From positions 1-19,554 of the forward strand of contig LJUI01000033.1 in the NCBI GenBank assembly GCA_001303705.1: DNA of 19,554 nucleotides. Direction: 5' to 3'. Below, in pieces: positions 1 through 17,287 of the stretch. Made by a program: the position numbers and the translations under genes. Origin of the DNA: a candidate division TA06 bacterium SM23_40 (GTDB lineage Bacteria > LJUI01 > SM1-40). The notes below the pieces were generated by a model. The model saw only the letters and a list, made by a program, of their open reading frames with translations, was not told where the DNA came from and ran no database searches. Numbering within the stretch: position 1 is the stretch's first letter; the number at the start of each line of letters is the position of its first letter.

Positions 1-1047
<1,047 letters not shown>

Positions 1048-3478: not shown

Positions 3479-6400
3479 ATGAGGATCACTGAAGTCCCCC
3501 TCACTGTGTTCTTGCTCGCCGTTCTCGTCTCTCTGTTCGCCGTCTCCGCCGGCCCGCTCGTCTCCGGCTCTCAGACTGAGCCCGGAGACGTAGAGGCATA
3601 CTGGCATAACGGCGACGTCACGGCGATAGTCCACCTCGCCTCACCTACAGGCAGCCGGCTCATTGGCCAGCTCACCTTGCAGGTGATCGATTTCGATGAT
3701 AACCCGATCGCGGAGGCGACTACGACCGCGGTCCTCCGCAGCCACACGCGGCGGTTCCGTCTCGTGTTACCGATCGACGAGGCGAGCGGTGATCCCTACT
3801 GGTATCGCCTGCGCTACGAGTTCAGGTCTGCCTCGTCGGTGATCACCAAGACCGTCTCTCTCTCCCAGTTCCTTCCGCAGCTCGAGACACACGTGCTCGG
3901 ACAGACTGATTTCGTTGCCGGGAGCCCCGCATCGATCCGCATCGTCACTCTCGACCACGGTACGCAGCAGGCGCTGAGCGACGCTGCGGTGACGATCGAT
4001 CTCGTGATCTCCGGGGACGAAGACCCGCGACGCCTGTTCAGCGGCCGCACCAACTCCGGGGGAACAGTAGACGCCTCGTTCTTCATACCGGACGTAGCAT
4101 CTGACGAGGCGAAGCTCGTCATCATCGCGGAGTCCGAGATCGGACGCGACGTCGTCGAGCGTCACGTCACGATCGGCCGTTCCAACCAGATACTCCTCGT
4201 CACCGACAAGCCTCTGTACCAGCCGGGCCAGTTGATTCATCTACGCGCCCTTGTCCTCCGTCGGCCCGACCGCGCGGCCGCCGCCGGCCTCCCGCTCACC
4301 CTCGAGATCGAGGACCCCAGGGGCAACAAGGTCTTCAAGGTCACCCAGACGACGAGCAAGTTCGGCATCGCGTCCGCTGACTTCCAGCTCGCAGACGAGA
4401 TCAACATGGGACCCTATCATGTCAGGGCCTTAATCGGCGATGATGTGAGCGAGAAGACGGTGACCGTCGAACGGTATGTTCTCCCGAAATTCGAGGTCGA
4501 GGTGACGACCGACAGGACTTACTATCTTCCCGGCCAGAAGCTTCAGGGCGACATTCAGGTAGACTACTTCTTCGGCAAGCCGGTCTCCGGTGGAAGGGTA
4601 GAGGTCGGCCTCGCGAAGTTCGACATCGGATTCGATGAGTTCGCCCGCATCACGGGGACAACAGACGACGAAGGCCACTTCCGTTTCGATACGGTCCTGC
4701 CCGACTACTTTGTCGGACAGCCGCTCGAAGAAGGCAAGGCGCTCATCAAGCTAGAGGTCCGCATCACCGACCAGGCCAACCATGAGGAGTCGAAGACCAT
4801 CACGCGGACCGTCGCTGCCCATCCGATCTCCGTCGTCATCATCCCGGAGAGTGGGGATCTCGTGCCCGGGGTGGAGAACATCGTCTACGTCCTCACGGCA
4901 TATCCCGATGGGACCCCGGCCGAGGCGCGGGTCACGCTCAGGATCGAGGGGACGGGGGCCGAGTTCTCTGCTGCTGCAGATGACCTGGGAATCGCTACGT
5001 TCACCGCCCCCCTCCGTCCCTCGGGCGGTGCGGCCGGTTCTGTGGACAACGTGAAGCTCGTCGCCACGGCCACTGACAGAAGCGGCAACAGAGGACAGGT
5101 CACACTCGAGTCCGAGTTCGACGAGGCACCGGACCATGTCCTCGTGCGCGCGGACCAGTCGCTGTACCGCGTCGGTGACCCCATAGAGGTGACTCTCCTC
5201 ACCACCACCGGGTCGGGCAGGGCGTACCTCGATCTTGTCAAAGAGGGCCAGACAGTCCTCACCCGATCCCTCGCCATCTCTGGTGGAAGGGGCCGTGTCT
5301 CGCTCGATCTCGACGAGACGATGAGCGGGACCCTGTGGCTCCACGCGTACATCATCTCGCGGACCGGCCACATGGTCCGCGACACACGGGTCGTGTACGT
5401 CAATCCGGCGAACGATCTCTCGATAGCGATTACGCCGGACCGCGACACATACCGGCCAGGGGAAGATGCACAGATCCTGTTCCAGGTGACCGATGGGAAT
5501 GGGCAGCCAGTGCTCTCCGCCCTCGGCATCTCGATCGTCGATGAGAGCGTCTTCGCCCTGCAGGAGCTCCAGCCGGGCCTGGAGAAGGTCTACTTCACGC
5601 TCGAAGAAGAGATCATGAAACCTCGCTATGAGATCCACGCGTTCACCCCACGGGATCTAGTCCGGTGGCCCGTCGACCAGCCCCCGCCGGGACACAAAGA
5701 CAAGGCGGCGGCGGTGCTCTTCGCCACGGCGGCGGAGCCTCCGACCACCTACTCCCTTGCAGTCAATACATTCACGGAGCGCCAGGAGCGCCTGCGCGAG
5801 CTGGCAGAGGAACGTCTGCGGCGCGATGCGGCGCGGCTCTCAGAGAGTCTCCAGGAGTTCGTGCGGCGGCGCCAGCGCGCCATTACCAGGAAAGAGGGAC
5901 TGGAGGCCGCAGTGCGCGCAGGACACCTGCGCCAGGACGAGATACTCGATCCCTGGGGGAACCCGTACCGCCTGCTGCGCGACTACAGCGGATGGAACCT
6001 CGAGCTCATGAGCGCAGGGCCGGATGGGGTCGAAGAGACCGCCGACGATCTTACCTGGTCCGAGCAGATGTTGCTCTTCGAGGGCGAGCGTATGGACATG
6101 GCCAACCTCCGGGCGGGGGTCGGCGGCTTCGGAATGCCGTTCGACAAGAAGGAACTCGATGTCCTCGCCAGCGTGTCGGAGGAGATCCCCGCGCCGGCCG
6201 GGGCGCCCGACGCGACAGGCGTGGCAGAGCCGCGGATCAGGCGGTACTTCCCGGAGACCCTGTGGTGGCAGCCCCAGCTCATCACCGACCGACATGGGCG
6301 GGCCACCCTGGATATCAAGATGGCCGACTCGATCACCCGCTGGAGGCTCACCTCGATGGCGTCCTCAGCCAGCGGGATGCTCGGGAGCCAGACGACCGGC

Positions 6401-8359
6401 ATCATCGCGTTCCAGGACTTCTTCGTCGACCTCGACCTGCCGGTGAGTCTCACAGAGAAGGATATCGTCTCGATTCCGGTGGCGATCTATAACTACCTGG
6501 AAACGACTCAGGATGTCGGGCTCGAGCTCCAGCCCGATGACTGGTATGAGCTCGACGGAGATCGGACGATCCGTCTCACCCTCGATCCGAACGAGGTGAC
6601 GGTCGCCTACTATAGGATCAAGGCAATGGAGATCGGACTCCACGAGATCACTGTCAAGGCCTACGGAAGCGAGATGAGCGATGCCATCGCGCGCAAGGTC
6701 GAGGTGGTGCCCGACGGGCAGGAGCAGTGGATCTCGGCGAGCGAGCGCCTGGACGCGAGGGCGGTTCAGACACTCCACATCCCGCAAGCAGCGATCGATG
6801 GCGCATCGCGCATCCTGGCGAGAATCTACCCCGGCATCTTCAGTCAGATCGTCGAGGGCCTCGATTCCATGCTCCAGGTTCCATTCGGCTGCTTCGAGCA
6901 GACCTCTTCGGTCACGTACCCCAACATACTCGTACTCCACTACATGCGCGAGACCGACCAGATCACGCCGGAGATCGAGATGAAGGCAGAGCAGTACATC
7001 AATCTGGGGTACCAGAGGCTGTTGAGTTTCGAGGTACCGGGCGGCGGATTCGAGTGGTTCGGAAACGCCCCCGCAAGCAAGATCCTCAGCGCCTATGGCC
7101 TGATGGAATTCCAGGACATGAGCGAGGTGTATGAGATCGACCAAGAAATCATCACCCGCACCAGACGCTGGCTCATCGCGCAGCAGAACGGTGATGGGTC
7201 GTGGTCGCCGGATGCGAGCTACCTCCACGCGGAGAGCTGGGGGCGTATCCAGAACTCCAACCTCCTCCCCACCGCCTATATCCTCTGGGCTCTCTTGGAG
7301 ACCGACTACCAGGGGGAGGAGACATCGCGCGCTCTCTCCTATCTCCGGGCCCACCTCGACGAGGCGGAGGGCCCGTACACGCTGGCCATCGCGGCCAATG
7401 CCCTTGTCGCCGCCGATCGCAACCATGCCTCGACGCGGAAGGCCTTCGATGACCTGCTCGCCCTCGCCATTGTGGAGGGTGACGCCATGCACTGGGAGTC
7501 GGAGATCCCCTCGTTCACGCATGCGCGCGACAAGAGCGCCGATATCGAGACGACCGCCCTCGCCGCCTATGCGCTCATCCGCTACGGCAAGCGGGCGGAC
7601 GCGACGTCTCAGGTCCTCAACTACCTCATCGAGAGCAAGGATCCATATGGACGCTGGTACACGACTCAGGGTACGATACTCGCCCTGAGGGCACTCCTCG
7701 CATCCCTCGGCACAACGGCAGAGAGCACCGATGCGACCGTAACGATCACTATCAATGGCGAGAAGGCGGAGACGATCGAGATCACGCCCGAGACGAGCGA
7801 CGTGATGCGTCTCGTCGACCTCGGCCGCTTCACACAGGAGGGAGCAAACACGATCGAGCTCACGTTCGATGGCGAGGGAAGCGCTCTGTACGAGCTCGCC
7901 GCCAAGTACTTCGTCCCGTGGCGCCTCGTGCCGCTCCCGAGAGAAGGGTTGCTCGCGATCGACGTCGAGTATGACAAGCGCGAACTGGAAATGAACGATA
8001 CCGTCGTCTCACACGTGCGCGTCGAGACCCGCCGTCCGGGGCGAGCCGAGATGGTCATCGTCGACCTCGGCATCCCGCCCGGATTCTCGGTCGAGACCGC
8101 CGACCTGACAGAACTCGTCGACAACGGGACGATCCAGAAGTACAGCCTGACCGGCCGTCAGATCATCATCTACCTGGACAAGATCGAGTCCGGCAAGCCC
8201 GTCGAGTTCGATTACCGGCTGAGGGCGACGATGCCGGTCGTCGCCAGTTCGGGCGTCTCCCGCGTCTATGAGTACTACAACACAGATGTGGAGGCGATCT
8301 CACAGCCAGTGGAGATGGTCGTAGGCGAGCATCAGGCCGAGGACAACAACGAGGGTTGA
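3479..8359 (+). CDS. secreted alpha-2-macroglobulin family protein with pseudopilin-like insert
   Basis: A 1626-residue bacterial alpha-2-macroglobulin, a family that traps proteases by bait cleavage and covalent thioester capture. A signal peptide (about 1-24, ending VSA) without a lipobox cysteine suggests export without lipid anchoring. Macroglobulin domains follow: MG2 with TDKPLYQPGQ from about 242, an MG3-like segment near 335-385, and a bait-region domain up to VDESVFAL (about 690). Next come a charged helix (about 766-820) and DPWGNPY (824-830) ... SAGPDG ... TADDL (845-858), which resembles the GspG pseudopilin C-terminus. The A2M domain begins at YFPETLWWQP (about 921). The thioester motif is C1138-F-E-Q1141, then the alpha-helical thioester domain, and a receptor-binding-like domain ends the protein (GKPVEFDYRL near 1580). 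The ATG has CGGAGG nine bases upstream. No pbpC partner is adjacent, unlike enterobacterial yfhM loci. Confidence 0.93.
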   Translation: MRITEVPLTVFLLAVLVSLFAVSAGPLVSGSQTEPGDVEAYWHNGDVTAIVHLASPTGSRLIGQLTLQVIDFDDNPIAEATTTAVLRSHTRRFRLVLPIDEASGDPYWYRLRYEFRSASSVITKTVSLSQFLPQLETHVLGQTDFVAGSPASIRIVTLDHGTQQALSDAAVTIDLVISGDEDPRRLFSGRTNSGGTVDASFFIPDVASDEAKLVIIAESEIGRDVVERHVTIGRSNQILLVTDKPLYQPGQLIHLRALVLRRPDRAAAAGLPLTLEIEDPRGNKVFKVTQTTSKFGIASADFQLADEINMGPYHVRALIGDDVSEKTVTVERYVLPKFEVEVTTDRTYYLPGQKLQGDIQVDYFFGKPVSGGRVEVGLAKFDIGFDEFARITGTTDDEGHFRFDTVLPDYFVGQPLEEGKALIKLEVRITDQANHEESKTITRTVAAHPISVVIIPESGDLVPGVENIVYVLTAYPDGTPAEARVTLRIEGTGAEFSAAADDLGIATFTAPLRPSGGAAGSVDNVKLVATATDRSGNRGQVTLESEFDEAPDHVLVRADQSLYRVGDPIEVTLLTTTGSGRAYLDLVKEGQTVLTRSLAISGGRGRVSLDLDETMSGTLWLHAYIISRTGHMVRDTRVVYVNPANDLSIAITPDRDTYRPGEDAQILFQVTDGNGQPVLSALGISIVDESVFALQELQPGLEKVYFTLEEEIMKPRYEIHAFTPRDLVRWPVDQPPPGHKDKAAAVLFATAAEPPTTYSLAVNTFTERQERLRELAEERLRRDAARLSESLQEFVRRRQRAITRKEGLEAAVRAGHLRQDEILDPWGNPYRLLRDYSGWNLELMSAGPDGVEETADDLTWSEQMLLFEGERMDMANLRAGVGGFGMPFDKKELDVLASVSEEIPAPAGAPDATGVAEPRIRRYFPETLWWQPQLITDRHGRATLDIKMADSITRWRLTSMASSASGMLGSQTTGIIAFQDFFVDLDLPVSLTEKDIVSIPVAIYNYLETTQDVGLELQPDDWYELDGDRTIRLTLDPNEVTVAYYRIKAMEIGLHEITVKAYGSEMSDAIARKVEVVPDGQEQWISASERLDARAVQTLHIPQAAIDGASRILARIYPGIFSQIVEGLDSMLQVPFGCFEQTSSVTYPNILVLHYMRETDQITPEIEMKAEQYINLGYQRLLSFEVPGGGFEWFGNAPASKILSAYGLMEFQDMSEVYEIDQEIITRTRRWLIAQQNGDGSWSPDASYLHAESWGRIQNSNLLPTAYILWALLETDYQGEETSRALSYLRAHLDEAEGPYTLAIAANALVAADRNHASTRKAFDDLLALAIVEGDAMHWESEIPSFTHARDKSADIETTALAAYALIRYGKRADATSQVLNYLIESKDPYGRWYTTQGTILALRALLASLGTTAESTDATVTITINGEKAETIEITPETSDVMRLVDLGRFTQEGANTIELTFDGEGSALYELAAKYFVPWRLVPLPREGLLAIDVEYDKRELEMNDTVVSHVRVETRRPGRAEMVIVDLGIPPGFSVETADLTELVDNGTIQKYSLTGRQIIIYLDKIESGKPVEFDYRLRATMPVVASSGVSRVYEYYNTDVEAISQPVEMVVGEHQAEDNNEG

Positions 8360-8384
8360 TAGAAAACGGTCACTGTGCTAGAAT
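8356..8384 (+). promoter_or_regulatory. extended -10 sigma-70 promoter overlapping the macroglobulin stop codon
   Basis: TTGATA (8356-8361) matches the -35 consensus at 5 of 6 bases. After a 17-bp spacer comes TAGAAT (8379-8384, 5 of 6), preceded by TGC to give an extended -10. The -35 overlaps the TGA stop of the upstream gene. The predicted start near 8391 lies inside the adjoining terminator stem. It would drive the DUF2520 and DUF89 genes with a leader of about 118 bases. Confidence 0.7.
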
Positions 8385-8423
8385 CTCCGCACCTGACCCG
8401 GTGGTCAGGTGCGGAGCCTTTTT
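8385..8423 (+). terminator. intrinsic terminator after the macroglobulin gene
   Basis: A perfect 14-bp stem, CTCCGCACCTGACC (8385-8398) and GGTCAGGTGCGGAG (8403-8416), closes a CGGT loop and is followed by CC and five T residues (8419-8423). This is a textbook Rho-independent terminator 25 bases past the stop codon. It abuts the -10 of the next promoter. Confidence 0.93.
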
Positions 8424-8508
8424 GCGAGACATACCTGTCGTCGCGGTCATATCCGGACAGGACCTGGATGGGCCGGACCGCCGCACACGCAGAGGACAGA
8501 CTGCTCAC

Positions 8509-9531
8509 ATGGGAACGAGCGTCGCCATCATCGGCGCGGGACGGGTAGGCACGGCACTCGGAGTCCTCCTGAGCCAGGAAGGATATCGCCTGACGGGCGT
8601 CGCCGACATCGATCTGGTGCACGCTGAGGCCTGCGCCCGGCTCATCCTGAGCGAGGCGAGTGAGCAAGACCTCGCCGGGTTTGTCAGCACCGGCCCGTGC
8701 CAGTTCGTGGGCGATGCCGACATCGTCTTCATCACTACTCCCGACCGCGAAATCCCCCATGTCGCCCGTCTACTGGCCGAGTGCGCGAGGGGCAAGGAAC
8801 AACCGCTCCGCGCGGGCGCGACTCTCTGTCATACGAGCGGCGCCCTTCCTTCTACTATCCTCAAAGTCGAAGGCCTTGAACACGTCTCAGTCCTCTCCCT
8901 CCACCCGCTTCAGACCTTCCCTGATCGGGAGACGGCCCCGAGGCTACTCGCGGGTGCCATCTTCGTGCTCGAGGGCGATCCTGATGCGGTCGCGGTGGGA
9001 GAGCGCCTGGTGCAGGATCTAGCAGGGAGGGCGGTGACGATCGAGGCGCGCCACAAGACGATCTATCACGCCGCCGCCTGCACAGCCTCCAATTATCTGG
9101 TGACGCTCCTCCACTTGGCGGGCCGGCTCCTCAGCAGGGCAGGTGTCGATTGGGACGACGCGCTCGACATGCTCCTCCCTCTGGCACGGACCACGCTCGA
9201 CAATGTCGCTTCCCTCGGCACACACAGTGCGCTCACCGGGCCCATCGAACGGGGAGACATCGCCACTCTCGAGTCCCACCTCGGCGCTCTCAGACGAGGG
9301 CCCGACCCGGACCTCCAGGCAGTCTATGCGATCCTCGGACTGTCAGCCGCAGCGCTGGCATCGGAAAAGGGAAGCATCTCTCCCGAACAACGGGGCCGCA
9401 TCGAAGAGCTCCTCAGCGCTGCCCTCTCCACGTCCCTGCGCGCCACCGGGAGAGGCACGTCCGGGAAGGGCGGGCCTCCTCCTTCCGACGCCGCGGAGCC
9501 CCGAGACCCTACGTCAGAGCGCGAGGAGTGA
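8509..9531 (+). CDS. Rossmann-like and DUF2520 domain protein (putative oxidoreductase)
   Basis: A 340-residue protein with an N-terminal dinucleotide-binding Rossmann fold, IIGAGRVGTALG (7-18), resembling the pyrroline-5-carboxylate reductase and 6-phosphogluconate dehydrogenase superfamily. The DUF2520 signature SLHPLQTFPD lies around H132, and a helical C-terminal domain with the typical ASNYLVTLL segment follows. The substrate is unknown for the family; an NAD(P)-dependent redox role is inferred from the fold only. The last 30 or so residues are Gly/Pro/Ser/Arg-rich and probably disordered. The open frame extends upstream to 8356, but that would run through the promoter and terminator, so the ATG at 8509, where the Rossmann strand begins, is the sensible start; its ribosome site (AGAGGA, about 12 bases upstream) is weak. 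It is followed after five bases by the DUF89 gene. Confidence 0.88.
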   Translation: MGTSVAIIGAGRVGTALGVLLSQEGYRLTGVADIDLVHAEACARLILSEASEQDLAGFVSTGPCQFVGDADIVFITTPDREIPHVARLLAECARGKEQPLRAGATLCHTSGALPSTILKVEGLEHVSVLSLHPLQTFPDRETAPRLLAGAIFVLEGDPDAVAVGERLVQDLAGRAVTIEARHKTIYHAAACTASNYLVTLLHLAGRLLSRAGVDWDDALDMLLPLARTTLDNVASLGTHSALTGPIERGDIATLESHLGALRRGPDPDLQAVYAILGLSAAALASEKGSISPEQRGRIEELLSAALSTSLRATGRGTSGKGGPPPSDAAEPRDPTSEREE

Positions 9532-10492: not shown

Positions 10493-11071
10493 TTGGAACA
10501 GACTGACGCGGAATTGGTGAACGCCGCCCGGGGCGGCGACGAGCAGGCGATCCGAGACCTCCTGGGGAGGTACAGAACAGCGGTCTTCAATCTCGCCTTT
10601 CGCATTTTGAGGAACGAAGAAGATGCCACCGACGCTGCCCAAGAGACATTCATCAGAGTGTTCCGTGCGCTCGACCGGTTCGACGAGCGTCAGCGATTCA
10701 AGCCGTGGATATTACGCATCGCTTCCAACTACTGTATCGACCAGATTCGCAAACGTGATTGGAGAACAGTCTCGTTCGACACGCCGATCGAGACCGAAGA
10801 TGGCACGCTCGAGATGGAGTTAGCAGGCCCGGGACCTCAGCCGGACGAGGTGCTGGAGAGGAAGGAGCAACGGATGGTCATCGAACAAGCGATCGACTCT
10901 CTGCCGCCAGACTATCGCATGGCCATCGTGCTCCGGCACACAGAAGGTCTCTCCTACGAAGAGATCGCCGACGTCCTGGGTGTGCCGCTGGGAACGGTGA
11001 AAGCGAGAATACATCGAGCGCGCTCCGCGCTCCAGAAGAAGCTCGCTCCGTTTCTCGAGAGTCACCTGTAA
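10493..11071 (+). CDS. ECF-type RNA polymerase sigma factor
   Basis: A 192-residue group IV sigma factor that would direct RNA polymerase to a stress regulon. Region 2 spans about 26-92 (FRILRNEEDATDAAQETFIRVF, then FKPWILRIASNYCIDQIRKR in shorter runs), and region 4 about 130-187 with the helix-turn-helix LSYEEIADVLGVPLGTVKAR. No regions 1.1 or 3 are present, and the length is typical. The start is TTG at 10493, with GAGGGTG about five bases upstream; nearby ATG and GTG codons are out of frame. A rare start codon may keep expression low, but that is inference. The gene lies 45 bp upstream of a zinc-finger anti-sigma gene, the classic arrangement. The 62-bp gap upstream shows no clear autoregulatory ECF promoter. 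Confidence 0.95.
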   Translation: MEQTDAELVNAARGGDEQAIRDLLGRYRTAVFNLAFRILRNEEDATDAAQETFIRVFRALDRFDERQRFKPWILRIASNYCIDQIRKRDWRTVSFDTPIETEDGTLEMELAGPGPQPDEVLERKEQRMVIEQAIDSLPPDYRMAIVLRHTEGLSYEEIADVLGVPLGTVKARIHRARSALQKKLAPFLESHL

Positions 11072-11116
11072 GGTGCGTCTAACCGGCCGTACCTGGCAGG
11101 CCAGAGGAGCTTGACC

Positions 11117-11794
11117 ATGCTCGATCAGTCCTTCAGCTGCAACGACATCGATGATCTAATGCAGAGCTATGCGGACGATGAACTCACCTCTGACGTCCGG
11201 AGGCTCTTCGAGGAACACGTCGGATCCTGTTCCCGCTGTCGTGCCGCAGTCAGAGTCATGGAAGAGACTATCACCCTCATCGAGCAGCTCCAGCCGGTCT
11301 CTCCTCCCCCTCACTTCGACGACTCCATCCTCGCCTCTCTTGGATTCAAGCACCGTCGCATTCCGATACTCACCCTGCTCCCTTCCAGAGCAACGGGCTG
11401 GCGGCTGGCGTGGGCCGCTCTCGTCCTCGCCCTCATCTCCGCCCCATTCTGGATGGCCTCGTATGCCCTGGGAGGGCGGGTGCGCGGAAGCGCCTTAGTC
11501 CTGCGAGAGGTGCCCAAATGGCTCGGCGGGGCGGTAAGCGCACTTGGCGCCGTCCCGACCGGCATCGTCAGATGGTATCATCTGCTCGGCTTCGACAACC
11601 TGTCGCACTATCTGATCCAAGGTACACACACGGTGGCAAAGGCAATGTTCCTGGCTGTAACGAGCGTCAGTCCGCTCGTCCCGCTTGTAGCACTGATCGT
11701 CGCTCTGTTATCCACGCTGTTGCTACTTCGATCATTGGGAACTCTCACCGTCCACCCGAGGAGGATCGACAATGGAACGTCAATTATCGGCTAG
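11117..11794 (+). CDS. zinc-finger anti-sigma factor, membrane-anchored
   Basis: A 225-residue putative anti-sigma factor for the sigma factor just upstream. The N-terminus carries the zinc-finger signature C8 ... H34-x3-C38-x2-C41 (EEHVGSCSRC) of the ZAS/zf-HC2 family, which binds and holds ECF sigma factors in the cytoplasm. A first membrane segment lies at about 96-116 (LAWAALVLALISAPFW) and a second hydrophobic stretch at about 186-208 (LVPLVALIVALLSTLLLL). The region between could sense the envelope. The ATG at 11117 is chosen over an in-frame TTG at 11111 because AGAGGAG ends about eight bases upstream of the ATG. Its 3' end overlaps the next gene by 23 bases, so the two are translationally linked. 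The signal released by or inducing it is unknown. Confidence 0.9.
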   Translation: MLDQSFSCNDIDDLMQSYADDELTSDVRRLFEEHVGSCSRCRAAVRVMEETITLIEQLQPVSPPPHFDDSILASLGFKHRRIPILTLLPSRATGWRLAWAALVLALISAPFWMASYALGGRVRGSALVLREVPKWLGGAVSALGAVPTGIVRWYHLLGFDNLSHYLIQGTHTVAKAMFLAVTSVSPLVPLVALIVALLSTLLLLRSLGTLTVHPRRIDNGTSIIG

Positions 11795-14563: not shown

Positions 14564-14683
14564 GCATCGTCAGCGAACGTGAGACAGTTGAGAATCGAAC
14601 AGTTTTGAGGGGGAAGAGAAGATTTCTCCTTTTCGGCTCGGCCCAGGGGTAGTAGAATCCCCGAGGGAAAGGAGCCGATTATG

Positions 14684-14721
14684 TATCTTCACAGCCTGCA
14701 GGCCAACGGAGCCATGGGAAT
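14684..14721 (+). repeat. 38-bp direct repeat, copy at the sppA start
   Basis: The second copy lies 158 bases after the first, between the two possible start codons of sppA (14681 and 14741). It could be an operator or a duplicated leader fragment; nothing in it is a recognised binding site. Confidence 0.85.
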
Positions 14722-14740
14722 ACCACCAAGGAGGCGAGCA

Positions 14741-17287
14741 ATGGGAACAACCATTGGGCGAGGTCCTGGCCGTCCCCCGGTAATCGCCCGGCGGCGCCGA
14801 TGCGATACCCGACGAGTGCAACAGATATGTCTGCTTGCACTCATACCTGCGATGATCTGTGCGAGCCAAGCCTGCGCGAACTCTCACGCCGAGGAACTCG
14901 CAGACATGCCCGGCTTCGACATTCTGGCGAGCGATCCATTCACCGGCTCGGTAGCTGTCTCCGATGATGCTCTCGCCACACTCATCAACCCCGCAGCGCT
15001 CGGCATGGCTCGTGCATTCAACGGCTACTTCTTCCACGCGAATTCAGACTCCAGCTTCGACGGGGACAATGGGCTCCTCCTTTCCGCCGACAAGCTCGGA
15101 TTCGGCGCCGAGTGGAGGCGCTTCTCCTCTGTCCCCAAGTACAACCGATACACATTCGCCTATGGAGGGGAGGTCTGGTCCGGCATCTACCTGGGCACTT
15201 CGTACTCGTGGATATCGTCGAGCGATGCCGAATTCGACCGCCTCTCCTTCTGGGACGCAGGAATCATGCTGCGCCCCTCCCGCTTCTTCTCGGCAGGGGC
15301 GGTCGCGCACAGTCTCAACGAACCCCATTTCCGCGACGAGCGCGTCGACCGAAGCTATCGCTACGGCGTGGCGGTCCGTCCCTGGACCAACCGCCTTACG
15401 CTGTACGCGGACGGGGTGTATGACGAAGACAGCAACCTCGACCGCGAGCGGGACTTCATCTTCGGGGCCGAGGCCGAACCGCTCGATGGTCTGGTTCTGC
15501 GCGCGGCCCTCGACGACGATGGGCGGGCAGGCGCCGGATTCGAGATCGGCCTGCCTCACATCGGTGCAGGCAACTTTAATCACTTCGATGAAAACCAGAA
15601 GTATCAGGGCGGCACGACATATCTCCGGTTCGGCGAAGAGCGTCGACGCACGGTTCTCCACGGAAGAAACCGCTTTCTGGAACTGACCTTGACGGGAGAG
15701 ATCCTCGAGGAGCGCCGCGGCTTCAGTCTGGCGGGGAGCGGCCGCCATACGACGGCCGAGTTCCTCGATCTCATTCATGAGGCGGCGGAGGATCCTGCGA
15801 TCGAGGGTATCCTGCTTCGTCCTGAAGGCATCGGAGCCGGCTGGGCAACGCTGGAAGAGCTCCGCCATGCGCTCGCGGACTTCAGGGCGCGGGGCAAGCT
15901 GGTCGTCTGCTACGTGGAAACTTCGTCCATGAAGCCGTACTACCTTGCATCCGGAGCCGACTACATCATCCTCAACCCTGACGGGTATGTTCTCCTGTTC
16001 GGCCTCCGCATCGAACGGGCCTATCTGAAGGGCACGCTCGCGAAGCTCGGCGTGGACGTAGACCTGGCGAGGGTTGGTCGGTACAAGAGCGCAGCAGAGA
16101 TGGTGACCCGGGACTCCATGTCCGACGAGGCCCGGGAGATGGCCAACTGGATTCTCGATGACCTGTATGACCATCTCGTGGCCGACATGGCAGACGGGCG
16201 GAACCTCTCCGCACAGGAGGTGAGGGCGCTCATCGACCAGGGGCTGTTCCTTGCTTCTGACGCCTACGAAGACGGACTCGCCGATACCCTCGCATACGAG
16301 GACGAGATAGAGGATATCGTCGAGATGCTCCACGGACGGGGTTACTCGAGGGCGAGGCCCGATGAACTGATGGCGGACAGATACCAGTATGATTGGACCA
16401 GGCCGCCGAAGATAGCCGTCATCTATGCCACCGGGTACATAACATCGGGGAAGAGCTCCACCGACTTCTTCACAGGCACGAAGACCATGGGTTCGGAGAC
16501 GATGGCCAGGGCGATCAGGAAGGCGAGGGAGGATAGTTCCATCAAGGCGATCGTCTTCCGCATCGACAGCGGAGGGGGCTCGGGTCTCGCCTCGGACGTG
16601 ATATGGCGGGAGGTCTCGCTCACCAGGGGCGAAAAGCCATTCATCGTCTCCATGTCCGATGTCGCTGGTTCAGGCGGGTACCATATCGCCTGTGCCGCGG
16701 ACAGGATCGTGGTCGACGGCAACACCATCACCGGCTCGATCGGCGTCATCTCCGGAAAGCCGACAATGAAAGGTCTGTACAACAAGCTCGGCATCACAAA
16801 GGACACCGAGCACCGAGGTAAACATGCCCTGGCGGCTTCTGACTACTATCGGTTCACCGAGGAAGAGATGGAACTCCTCGACGGGGTGACACGAAGGTCG
16901 TACTGGAGCTTCGTCGAAAAGGTGGCCGCGGGGAGGGGCATGACACCCGCACAGGTAGACTCGATCGGCGAAGGACGCGTCTTCACGGGGCGGCAGGCGG
17001 TGGACAACGGTCTTGCCGACGAGCTGGGCGGCCTGGACCGCGCGATCGCGATCGCCAAACAGCGGGTTGGCGTGCCTGCGGATGCAGAGATCCAGATCGT
17101 CACGTTCCCGAAGACGAGGTTCCCGTTCTTCCTCGGATGGACGGAGTCGTTTCTTTCGAACACCGCGGGCTCGCTGCCGATTTCGCTGTTAGGGGAGACA
17201 GCTGCCGCGGAGGCGATAGACCTTCTCGAACTGTTTGATGACGAGCCCTATCTCTATCTCATGCCCTACTCACTCGAACCAGAGTAG
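14741..17287 (+). CDS. sppA: SppA-type S49 protease with barrel-like N-terminal domain
   Basis: An 848-residue envelope protease. A basic N-terminus and hydrophobic stretch ICLLALIPAMICASQACA give a signal peptide ending near residue 48. Residues about 55-310 are rich in alternating aromatic/small strands and begin with SDDALATLINPAALG, resembling the NPA motif of PorV/FadL-like outer-membrane barrels. Two S49 domains follow: the first (about 320-510) contains the catalytic lysine K449 in VGRYKSAAE, the second (about 545-760) the nucleophile S644 in AGSGGYHIA, with the supporting GGG and TGSIGVI segments. This Lys/Ser pair matches the long E. coli-type SppA, which cleaves leftover signal peptides. 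The ATG at 14741 has AAGGAGG six bases upstream; an in-frame ATG at 14681, also with AAGGAG, would add 20 residues. It stands alone between two gaps. Confidence 0.9.
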   Translation: MGTTIGRGPGRPPVIARRRRCDTRRVQQICLLALIPAMICASQACANSHAEELADMPGFDILASDPFTGSVAVSDDALATLINPAALGMARAFNGYFFHANSDSSFDGDNGLLLSADKLGFGAEWRRFSSVPKYNRYTFAYGGEVWSGIYLGTSYSWISSSDAEFDRLSFWDAGIMLRPSRFFSAGAVAHSLNEPHFRDERVDRSYRYGVAVRPWTNRLTLYADGVYDEDSNLDRERDFIFGAEAEPLDGLVLRAALDDDGRAGAGFEIGLPHIGAGNFNHFDENQKYQGGTTYLRFGEERRRTVLHGRNRFLELTLTGEILEERRGFSLAGSGRHTTAEFLDLIHEAAEDPAIEGILLRPEGIGAGWATLEELRHALADFRARGKLVVCYVETSSMKPYYLASGADYIILNPDGYVLLFGLRIERAYLKGTLAKLGVDVDLARVGRYKSAAEMVTRDSMSDEAREMANWILDDLYDHLVADMADGRNLSAQEVRALIDQGLFLASDAYEDGLADTLAYEDEIEDIVEMLHGRGYSRARPDELMADRYQYDWTRPPKIAVIYATGYITSGKSSTDFFTGTKTMGSETMARAIRKAREDSSIKAIVFRIDSGGGSGLASDVIWREVSLTRGEKPFIVSMSDVAGSGGYHIACAADRIVVDGNTITGSIGVISGKPTMKGLYNKLGITKDTEHRGKHALAASDYYRFTEEEMELLDGVTRRSYWSFVEKVAAGRGMTPAQVDSIGEGRVFTGRQAVDNGLADELGGLDRAIAIAKQRVGVPADAEIQIVTFPKTRFPFFLGWTESFLSNTAGSLPISLLGETAAAEAIDLLELFDDEPYLYLMPYSLEPE

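What the first reader, a model, noticed from the sequence alone, without database searches (positions are those of the whole stretch)
5774..6058. Pseudopilin-like (GspG C-terminal) block in the bait region of a bacterial alpha-2-macroglobulin
Between VDESVFAL of the bait-region domain and YFPETLWW of the A2M domain the protein carries a charged helix, then LDPWGNPYRL and SAGPDGVEETADDL. The DPWGNPY ... SxGPDG ... TxDD order is the calcium-binding C-terminal signature of type II secretion major pseudopilins. Sitting where the protease bait normally lies, it could be a structured, calcium-gated bait or a docking element. The fusion may be a lineage-wide subfamily rather than unique; I cannot test that here.
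Basis: partly seen in the sequence, partly recalled or inferred. Interest (0 to 1): 0.72.

Follow-up and report, generated by a model that had tools for sequence, protein, structure and literature searches.

The report
Pseudopilin domain inside bacterial alpha-2-macroglobulin bait
Bacteria from many phyla make an animal-like protease-trapping protein (alpha-2-macroglobulin) that carries a folded, probably calcium-holding piece of a secretion-system pseudopilin exactly where complement proteins carry their anaphylatoxin domain, which suggests that this trigger slot is a socket for accessory modules.

Summary
ORF 3479-8359 (+) encodes a 1626-aa thioester alpha-2-macroglobulin (A2M). Residues ~760-863, in the bait/anaphylatoxin slot, form a soluble GspG-type pseudopilin domain. 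Support: Pfam T2SSG E=4e-6 for the block alone; hhalign against 12 genuine GspG, E=3e-16; an AlphaFold domain at pLDDT >90 whose best matches among solved structures are all major pseudopilins.

It is not unique: 79 of 83 closest A2Ms found, labelled from at least nine phyla, carry it, clustered on the A2M tree. Its only strongly conserved residues are the GspG hallmark and calcium loop. More distant relatives fill the slot with 2-8 predicted transmembrane helices, several T2SSG-like copies (calcium loop only in the last), or nothing.

The likely protease target is the disordered tail 866-916 behind the domain, just before the invariant plug residues R921 and F924. I propose a calcium-stabilised spacer/stopper, so that only tail cleavage trips the trap (inferred). 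Docking to a pseudopilus is disfavoured: in seven genomes this A2M is the only T2SSG match found. Calcium gating is possible but untested. New variant of a known kind.

The parts
3479..8359 (+). thioester alpha-2-macroglobulin gene, 1626 aa, with a hydrophobic N terminus that looks like a signal peptide
   Evidence: ORF; Pfam MG2, MG3, A2M_BRD, A2M, TED, A2M_recep; closest solved relatives CD109, A2M, C3
5561..5644 (+). conserved linker segment after VDESVFAL (residues 695-722, QELQPGLEKVYFTLEEEIMKPRYEIHAF), upstream edge of the slot
   Evidence: mean frequency of the commonest residue 0.64 over 79 sequences
5756..6067 (+). GspG-type soluble pseudopilin domain, residues ~760-863 (long charged helix followed by a small sheet)
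5948..5959 (+). DPWG hallmark, residues 824-827
   Evidence: D 100%, W 84%, G 77% of 79 inserts
6011..6049 (+). predicted calcium loop SAGPDGVEETADD, residues 845-857; ligands by analogy with 3G20: A846 O, D849, V851 O, T854, D857
6074..6226 (+). disordered tail, residues 866-916: the most likely protease bait (inferred)
   Evidence: pLDDT under 50 for window 866-913; mean conservation 0.24, Gly/Ala/Pro-rich
6227..6262 (+). alpha'NT plug EPRIRRYFPETL, residues 917-928; R921 and F924 correspond to human A2M R732 and F735
   Evidence: R921 and F924 invariant in 83 of 83; role of the human residues in PMC9352918
6887..6901 (+). thioester motif GCFEQ, residues 1137-1141

Best explanation
A complete thioester A2M of an animal-like bacterial class has a soluble GspG-type pseudopilin domain between its linker segment and its alpha'NT plug, the place filled by the unstructured bait in animal A2M and by the anaphylatoxin (ANA) domain in C3/C4/C5. 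Shown here: homology to GspG, predicted fold, slot, conserved calcium-site residues, multi-phylum clustered distribution, intact thioester and plug residues. Inferred: calcium bound outside the cytoplasm keeps the domain folded; the folded domain is a spacer and stopper that presents the flexible tail 866-916 as the real bait. A protease cutting the tail frees the alpha'NT plug, which retracts through the MG2-MG3 channel; the trap closes and the thioester couples to the protease. A cut on the N-terminal side of the domain would leave a folded bead of ~100 residues on the plug and should not trigger.
For: Domain identity; negative controls. Slot: alignments to CD109, A2M and C3 break exactly there; scaffold model aligns to CD109, A2ML1 and C5b over ~720 residues. 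Calcium loop is the most conserved part and matches the 3G20 ligands (PMC3396595). Tail disordered. Plug, channel and thioester residues invariant, fitting the plug-in-channel trigger of PMC9352918. In ten multi-copy inserts only the last copy, next to the tail, keeps the calcium loop.
Against: No experiment: calcium binding, cleavage sites and the stopper effect are all inferred. The human bait is triggered by cleavage anywhere, and a domain might unfold and pass the channel. Relatives with transmembrane inserts or short baits do without the domain, so it is not essential for A2M action in the wider family.
Confidence: 0.4

Rival explanations
1. Passive spacer: a mobile T2SSG module entered a permissive loop once and is kept with no role beyond length; its calcium site is conserved only because it holds the fold together.
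For: Only fold/calcium positions are conserved; the slot tolerates very different contents; T2SSG modules also occur in unrelated proteins of the same genomes.
Against: Retention in 79 of 83 sampled relatives from many labelled phyla with the loop nearly invariant, and a single loop kept in the last copy of multi-copy inserts, suggest selection on the folded state.
Confidence: 0.27
2. Calcium-gated bait: calcium loss unfolds the domain and makes it cleavable, so the trap responds to calcium.
For: Calcium-site residues conserved; calcium is reported essential for pseudopilin function (Korotkov 2009, cited in PMC3396595).
Against: A disordered tail is present and accessible in any case. Peptide affinities reported for the motif, 33-79 uM, suggest constitutive occupancy where calcium is in the high micromolar to millimolar range (inference).
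Confidence: 0.15
3. Anaphylatoxin-like release: two cuts free the domain as a diffusible signal.
For: Same slot as the ANA domain.
Against: The linker before the domain looks ordered and conserved; no receptor or processing site is known; transmembrane inserts in relatives could not be released.
Confidence: 0.06
4. Docking element that binds the A2M to the type II secretion pseudopilus.
For: Homology to the pilus subunit; 23 of 50 A2M-bearing genomes have a GspG over the equivalog cut-off.
Against: In G000, G059, G064, G065, G069, G070 and G071 this A2M is the only PF08334 match. The domain lacks the hydrophobic N-terminal helix by which pilins assemble. Some of these genomes are incomplete, and a secretin is present, so the argument is not absolute.
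Confidence: 0.05
5. Only a generic calcium loop (PERCAL-like), not a pseudopilin domain.
For: GxDGx(5)DD loops occur in unrelated bacterial proteins (PMC3396595).
Against: Homology covers 84 columns and the fold match about 100 residues including helix and sheet; the strict PERCAL pattern is not met (position 7 is E).
Confidence: 0.01

Closest known systems
GspG / PulG major pseudopilin of type II secretion (PF08334; PDB 3G20, 1T92)
   Same: Soluble domain: alpha1-C helix, DPWG, S-x-G-P-D ... D-D calcium loop, fold
   Different: No prepilin leader and no hydrophobic alpha1-N; embedded in a 1626-aa protein; below the GspG equivalog cut-off
Complement C3/C4/C5 with anaphylatoxin domain
   Same: A2M scaffold with a folded domain between linker and alpha'NT in place of an unstructured bait (PMC9352918)
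   Different: Pilin-type fold instead of the disulphide-bonded ANA helix bundle (from general knowledge); no cysteine in the window insert
Animal A2M, A2ML1 and CD109
   Same: Overall scaffold, thioester, plug and channel residues
   Different: Their bait is unstructured; this class has a ~230-residue insert with a domain
Type I bacterial A2M (E. coli YfhM / Salmonella A2M)
   Same: Bacterial thioester A2M with a bait-triggered trap
   Different: Much more distant in sequence than the animal members; classical genes lie beside the PBP1c gene (PMC5764988), whereas no shared neighbour was found here

Membership tests
alpha-2-macroglobulin superfamily, thioester type | MG domains, TED domain and CxEQ thioester motif | tested here: met
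   Pfam matches, GCFEQ at 1137, GCxEQ in 82 of 82 T2SSG-bearing rows with enough sequence
alpha-2-macroglobulin superfamily, thioester type | alpha'NT plug and MG2-MG3 channel residues | tested here: met
   R921, F924, Y333, L335, P336 invariant in 83
alpha-2-macroglobulin superfamily, thioester type | bait cleavage traps proteases | not testable with these tools
   needs biochemistry
GspG major pseudopilin | T2SSG profile match of the soluble domain | tested here: met
   27.2 bits alone, 20.7 in the whole protein, cut-off 21; hhalign E 3e-16 for the family
GspG major pseudopilin | pseudopilin fold | tested here: met
   predicted model; Z 10.7 to 3g20, top eight Foldseek matches all GspG
GspG major pseudopilin | calcium binding | not testable with these tools
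   ligand residues kept, binding not measured
GspG major pseudopilin | prepilin leader and hydrophobic N-terminal helix; GspG equivalog score | tested here: not met
   internal domain with a charged helix; TIGR01710 15.8-21.6 bits against 88.85. So: homologous domain, not a pseudopilin
Complement anaphylatoxin-bearing protein (C3/C4/C5) | folded domain between linker and alpha'NT | tested here: met
Complement anaphylatoxin-bearing protein (C3/C4/C5) | disulphide-rich ANA domain | tested here: not met
   no cysteine in the window insert; pilin-type fold
PERCAL calcium motif | GxDGxx[GN][TN]xDD | tested here: not met
   window GPDGVEETADD has E at position 7; it fits only the loose GxDGx(5)DD

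The most novel reading that the evidence does not exclude
The bait/ANA slot of a large bacterial A2M class is a general socket for trigger-shaping modules: a calcium-stabilised pseudopilin domain in one or more copies, or a membrane anchor of 2-8 helices, sets which cleavages fire the trap and where the protein sits. Complement's ANA domain would then be one solution among several to the same design.
Probability: 0.3. Interest if true: 0.8.

Novelty: new variant of a known kind. Interest (0 to 1): 0.62.

Why it matters
It gives a bacterial counterpart, with an unrelated fold, to the folded anaphylatoxin slot of complement, in proteins that resemble animal A2M/CD109/C3 more than they resemble E. 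coli A2M. Natural variants of the slot (T2SSG once or several times, membrane hairpins, short baits) make the plug-in-channel trigger model directly testable. No paper in the searched open library holds both 'macroglobulin' and 'pseudopilin'.

Tried and rejected
Docking to the cell's own pseudopilus: disfavoured by genomes whose only T2SSG match is this A2M, although a secretin is present in them. Conserved operon partner: none recurs across phyla. Plasmid carriage: nothing useful. PERCAL coincidence: rejected on extent of homology and fold. Controls: hhalign of the A2M flank against GspG gives prob 0.6%; GspG-only HMM on 2240 shuffled slots reaches at most 8.5 bits. Korotkov 2009, the 2017 PulG paper and Budd 2004 are not held.

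Full report
OBSERVATION. The block lies in one intact ORF, 3479-8359 (+), 1626 aa. nt 5774-6058 are residues 766-860; LDPWGNPYRL starts at 823, SAGPDGVEETADDL at 845, YFPETLWW at 923, and the thioester GCFEQ at 1137. Pfam gives MG2, MG3, A2M_BRD, A2M, TED and A2M_recep, and T2SSG over 789-856: 20.7 bits in the whole protein, 27.2 bits (E 4.1e-6) for the block alone, cut-off 21. phmmer against solved structures ranks the pseudopilins 3g20 (E 1.7e-5) and 1t92 first.

HOMOLOGUES. The held set has no genome nearer than 'same domain' to the window's genome. Two such genomes gave near homologues: one with a single insert, one with two tandem DxWG blocks. A genome-contig scan with the three-protein alignment gave 80 loci. 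In these plus the three starting proteins the slot between VDEavfAL and yFPETl is 196-357 residues long. A T2SSG-type domain is present in 79 of 83; the other four are three transmembrane inserts (L092, L104, L129) and one degenerate case (L126). The records are labelled Armatimonadota, Planctomycetota, Myxococcota and other 'Deltaproteobacteria', Acidobacteriota, Hydrogenedentota, Poribacteria, WOR-3/Stahlbacteria, Eremiobacterota, Bacillota and others. These are MAG labels and may contain misbinned contigs. The 80 are the best of 390 matches to a query that itself has the insert, so the fraction is biased towards close relatives.

IS IT GspG? Taken singly, 34 of 83 inserts match PF08334 at E<=0.01, and no other family recurs. 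Profile against profile with 12 genuine GspG/GspG-like pseudopilins from these genomes: prob 98.7, E 3.1e-16, 84 columns; the neighbouring A2M flank as control gives prob 0.6. AlphaFold of the insert has pLDDT 91-98 over the domain and about 45-58 over the tail. The first eight Foldseek PDB matches are all major pseudopilins, E 2e-3 for the best, which is modest because half the model is not part of the domain; VIA gives Z 10.7, 2.9 A over 102 residues to 3g20. An HMM built from the genuine GspG alone hits 56 of the 83 inserts at i-E<0.01; 2240 shuffled slots reach at most 8.5 bits.

CALCIUM SITE. In the ~100-residue domain only nine positions reach 75% conservation over 79 inserts: D824, W826, G827, S845, G847, P848, D849, D856, D857. 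The genuine GspG set keeps the same hallmark. In 3G20 calcium is held by the P114 and V119 carbonyls and by D117, T122 and D125 (PMC3396595). By alignment these map to A846, V851, D849, T854 and D857. Binding was not tested. Strict PERCAL is not met (position 7 is E).

SLOT AND SCAFFOLD. The A2M profile matches CD109, human A2M and C3 at E 1e-63 to 1e-55, and E. coli YfhM only at 3e-13. The aligned pieces break at this slot, where CD109 and A2M have their bait and C3 its ANA domain. The model of residues 131-1085 (pTM 0.80, pLDDT 90) aligns to CD109, A2ML1 and C5b over ~720 residues. Window residues 866-913 have pLDDT under 50.

OTHER CONTENTS OF THE SLOT. Further sampling in the phyla of L129 (Planctomycetota) and L092 (Chloroflexota) showed inserts with 2, 4, 6 and 8 predicted transmembrane helices by a simple hydropathy count (one count of 3, L177, looks like 4 by eye), short baits of ~105-150 residues, and multi-copy T2SSG. 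Even helix numbers would keep both halves on the same side of the membrane. In ten multi-copy inserts only the last copy has the calcium loop. One hairpin (L166) continues into a DUF1559 pilin-type N terminus (PF07596, E 4.3e-7). On a tree of the region downstream of the slot, 79 T2SSG rows lie on one branch (SH-aLRT 86) with two long rows apart; TM rows lie beside them and short rows on a separate starred branch. Five changes are needed against 24 for shuffled labels. This fits one old insertion, but a single origin is not proved and the root is not inferred.

CONTEXT. Of 50 A2M-bearing genomes, 23 have a GspG over the equivalog cut-off. In G000, G059, G064, G065, G069, G070 and G071 this A2M is the only PF08334 match; G071 holds L064 (CP070834, a chromosome record). 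No neighbour gene recurs across phyla.

MECHANISM (inferred). In human A2M the trigger is retraction of the alpha'NT plug from an MG2-MG3-LNK channel after the bait is cut, with R732 and F735 conserved (PMC9352918). The equivalents R921 and F924 and the channel residues Y333, L335 and P336 are invariant in all 83 proteins, and GCxEQ is in 82 of 82 T2SSG rows with enough sequence. The trap machinery is therefore complete. The disordered tail lies directly before the plug, and similar Gly/Ala/Pro-rich tails precede the plug in the transmembrane and short types. A folded bead upstream of the tail would make tail cleavage, and only tail cleavage, productive. The passive spacer and calcium gating are not excluded.

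VERDICT. Real, not unique, well supported as a GspG-type domain in the ANA/bait slot of an animal-like bacterial A2M class; mechanism open. No held paper mentions 'macroglobulin' together with 'pseudopilin' or 'T2SSG'. That covers an open-access library only and cannot exclude domain-architecture listings in databases.

Noticed in passing
L092, L104, L129, L166, L170, L171, L173, L175, L176, L177, L192 (bait slot): The bait slot holds 2, 4, 6 or 8 predicted transmembrane helices instead of the T2SSG domain (Chloroflexota and Planctomycetota), which would tether the A2M to a membrane through its bait.
   Followed up: partly
L166, slot residues 187-209: One transmembrane hairpin runs into a DUF1559 pilin-type N-terminal segment (PF07596, E 4.3e-7): a second pilin-related part in the same slot.
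   Followed up: partly
L049, L089, L162, L164, L165, L167, L169, L174, L181, L182: Tandem T2SSG-like copies in the slot; the calcium loop is present only in the last copy, next to the tail.
   Followed up: partly
L194-L207 (Chloroflexota), L184, L189: Animal-like A2Ms with short (~105-150 aa) baits and no module, on their own branch of the tree.
   Followed up: partly
L232:1592-3151(-) and L234:279-866(+): T2SSG-like soluble modules at the end of other proteins (one with a transmembrane helix, one lipoprotein-like) in an Acidobacteriota genome: the module is mobile.
   Followed up: partly
window 10493-11794: ECF sigma factor (Sigma70 r2/r4) followed by a zf-HC2 protein, probably its anti-sigma factor.
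   Followed up: no
window 14681-17287: 868-aa ORF with an S49 (SppA-type) peptidase domain on the same contig as the A2M.
   Followed up: no
window 8356-9531: DUF2520/Rossmann-like ORF that overlaps the end of the A2M gene by 4 bases (TTG start), so possibly translationally coupled.
   Followed up: no
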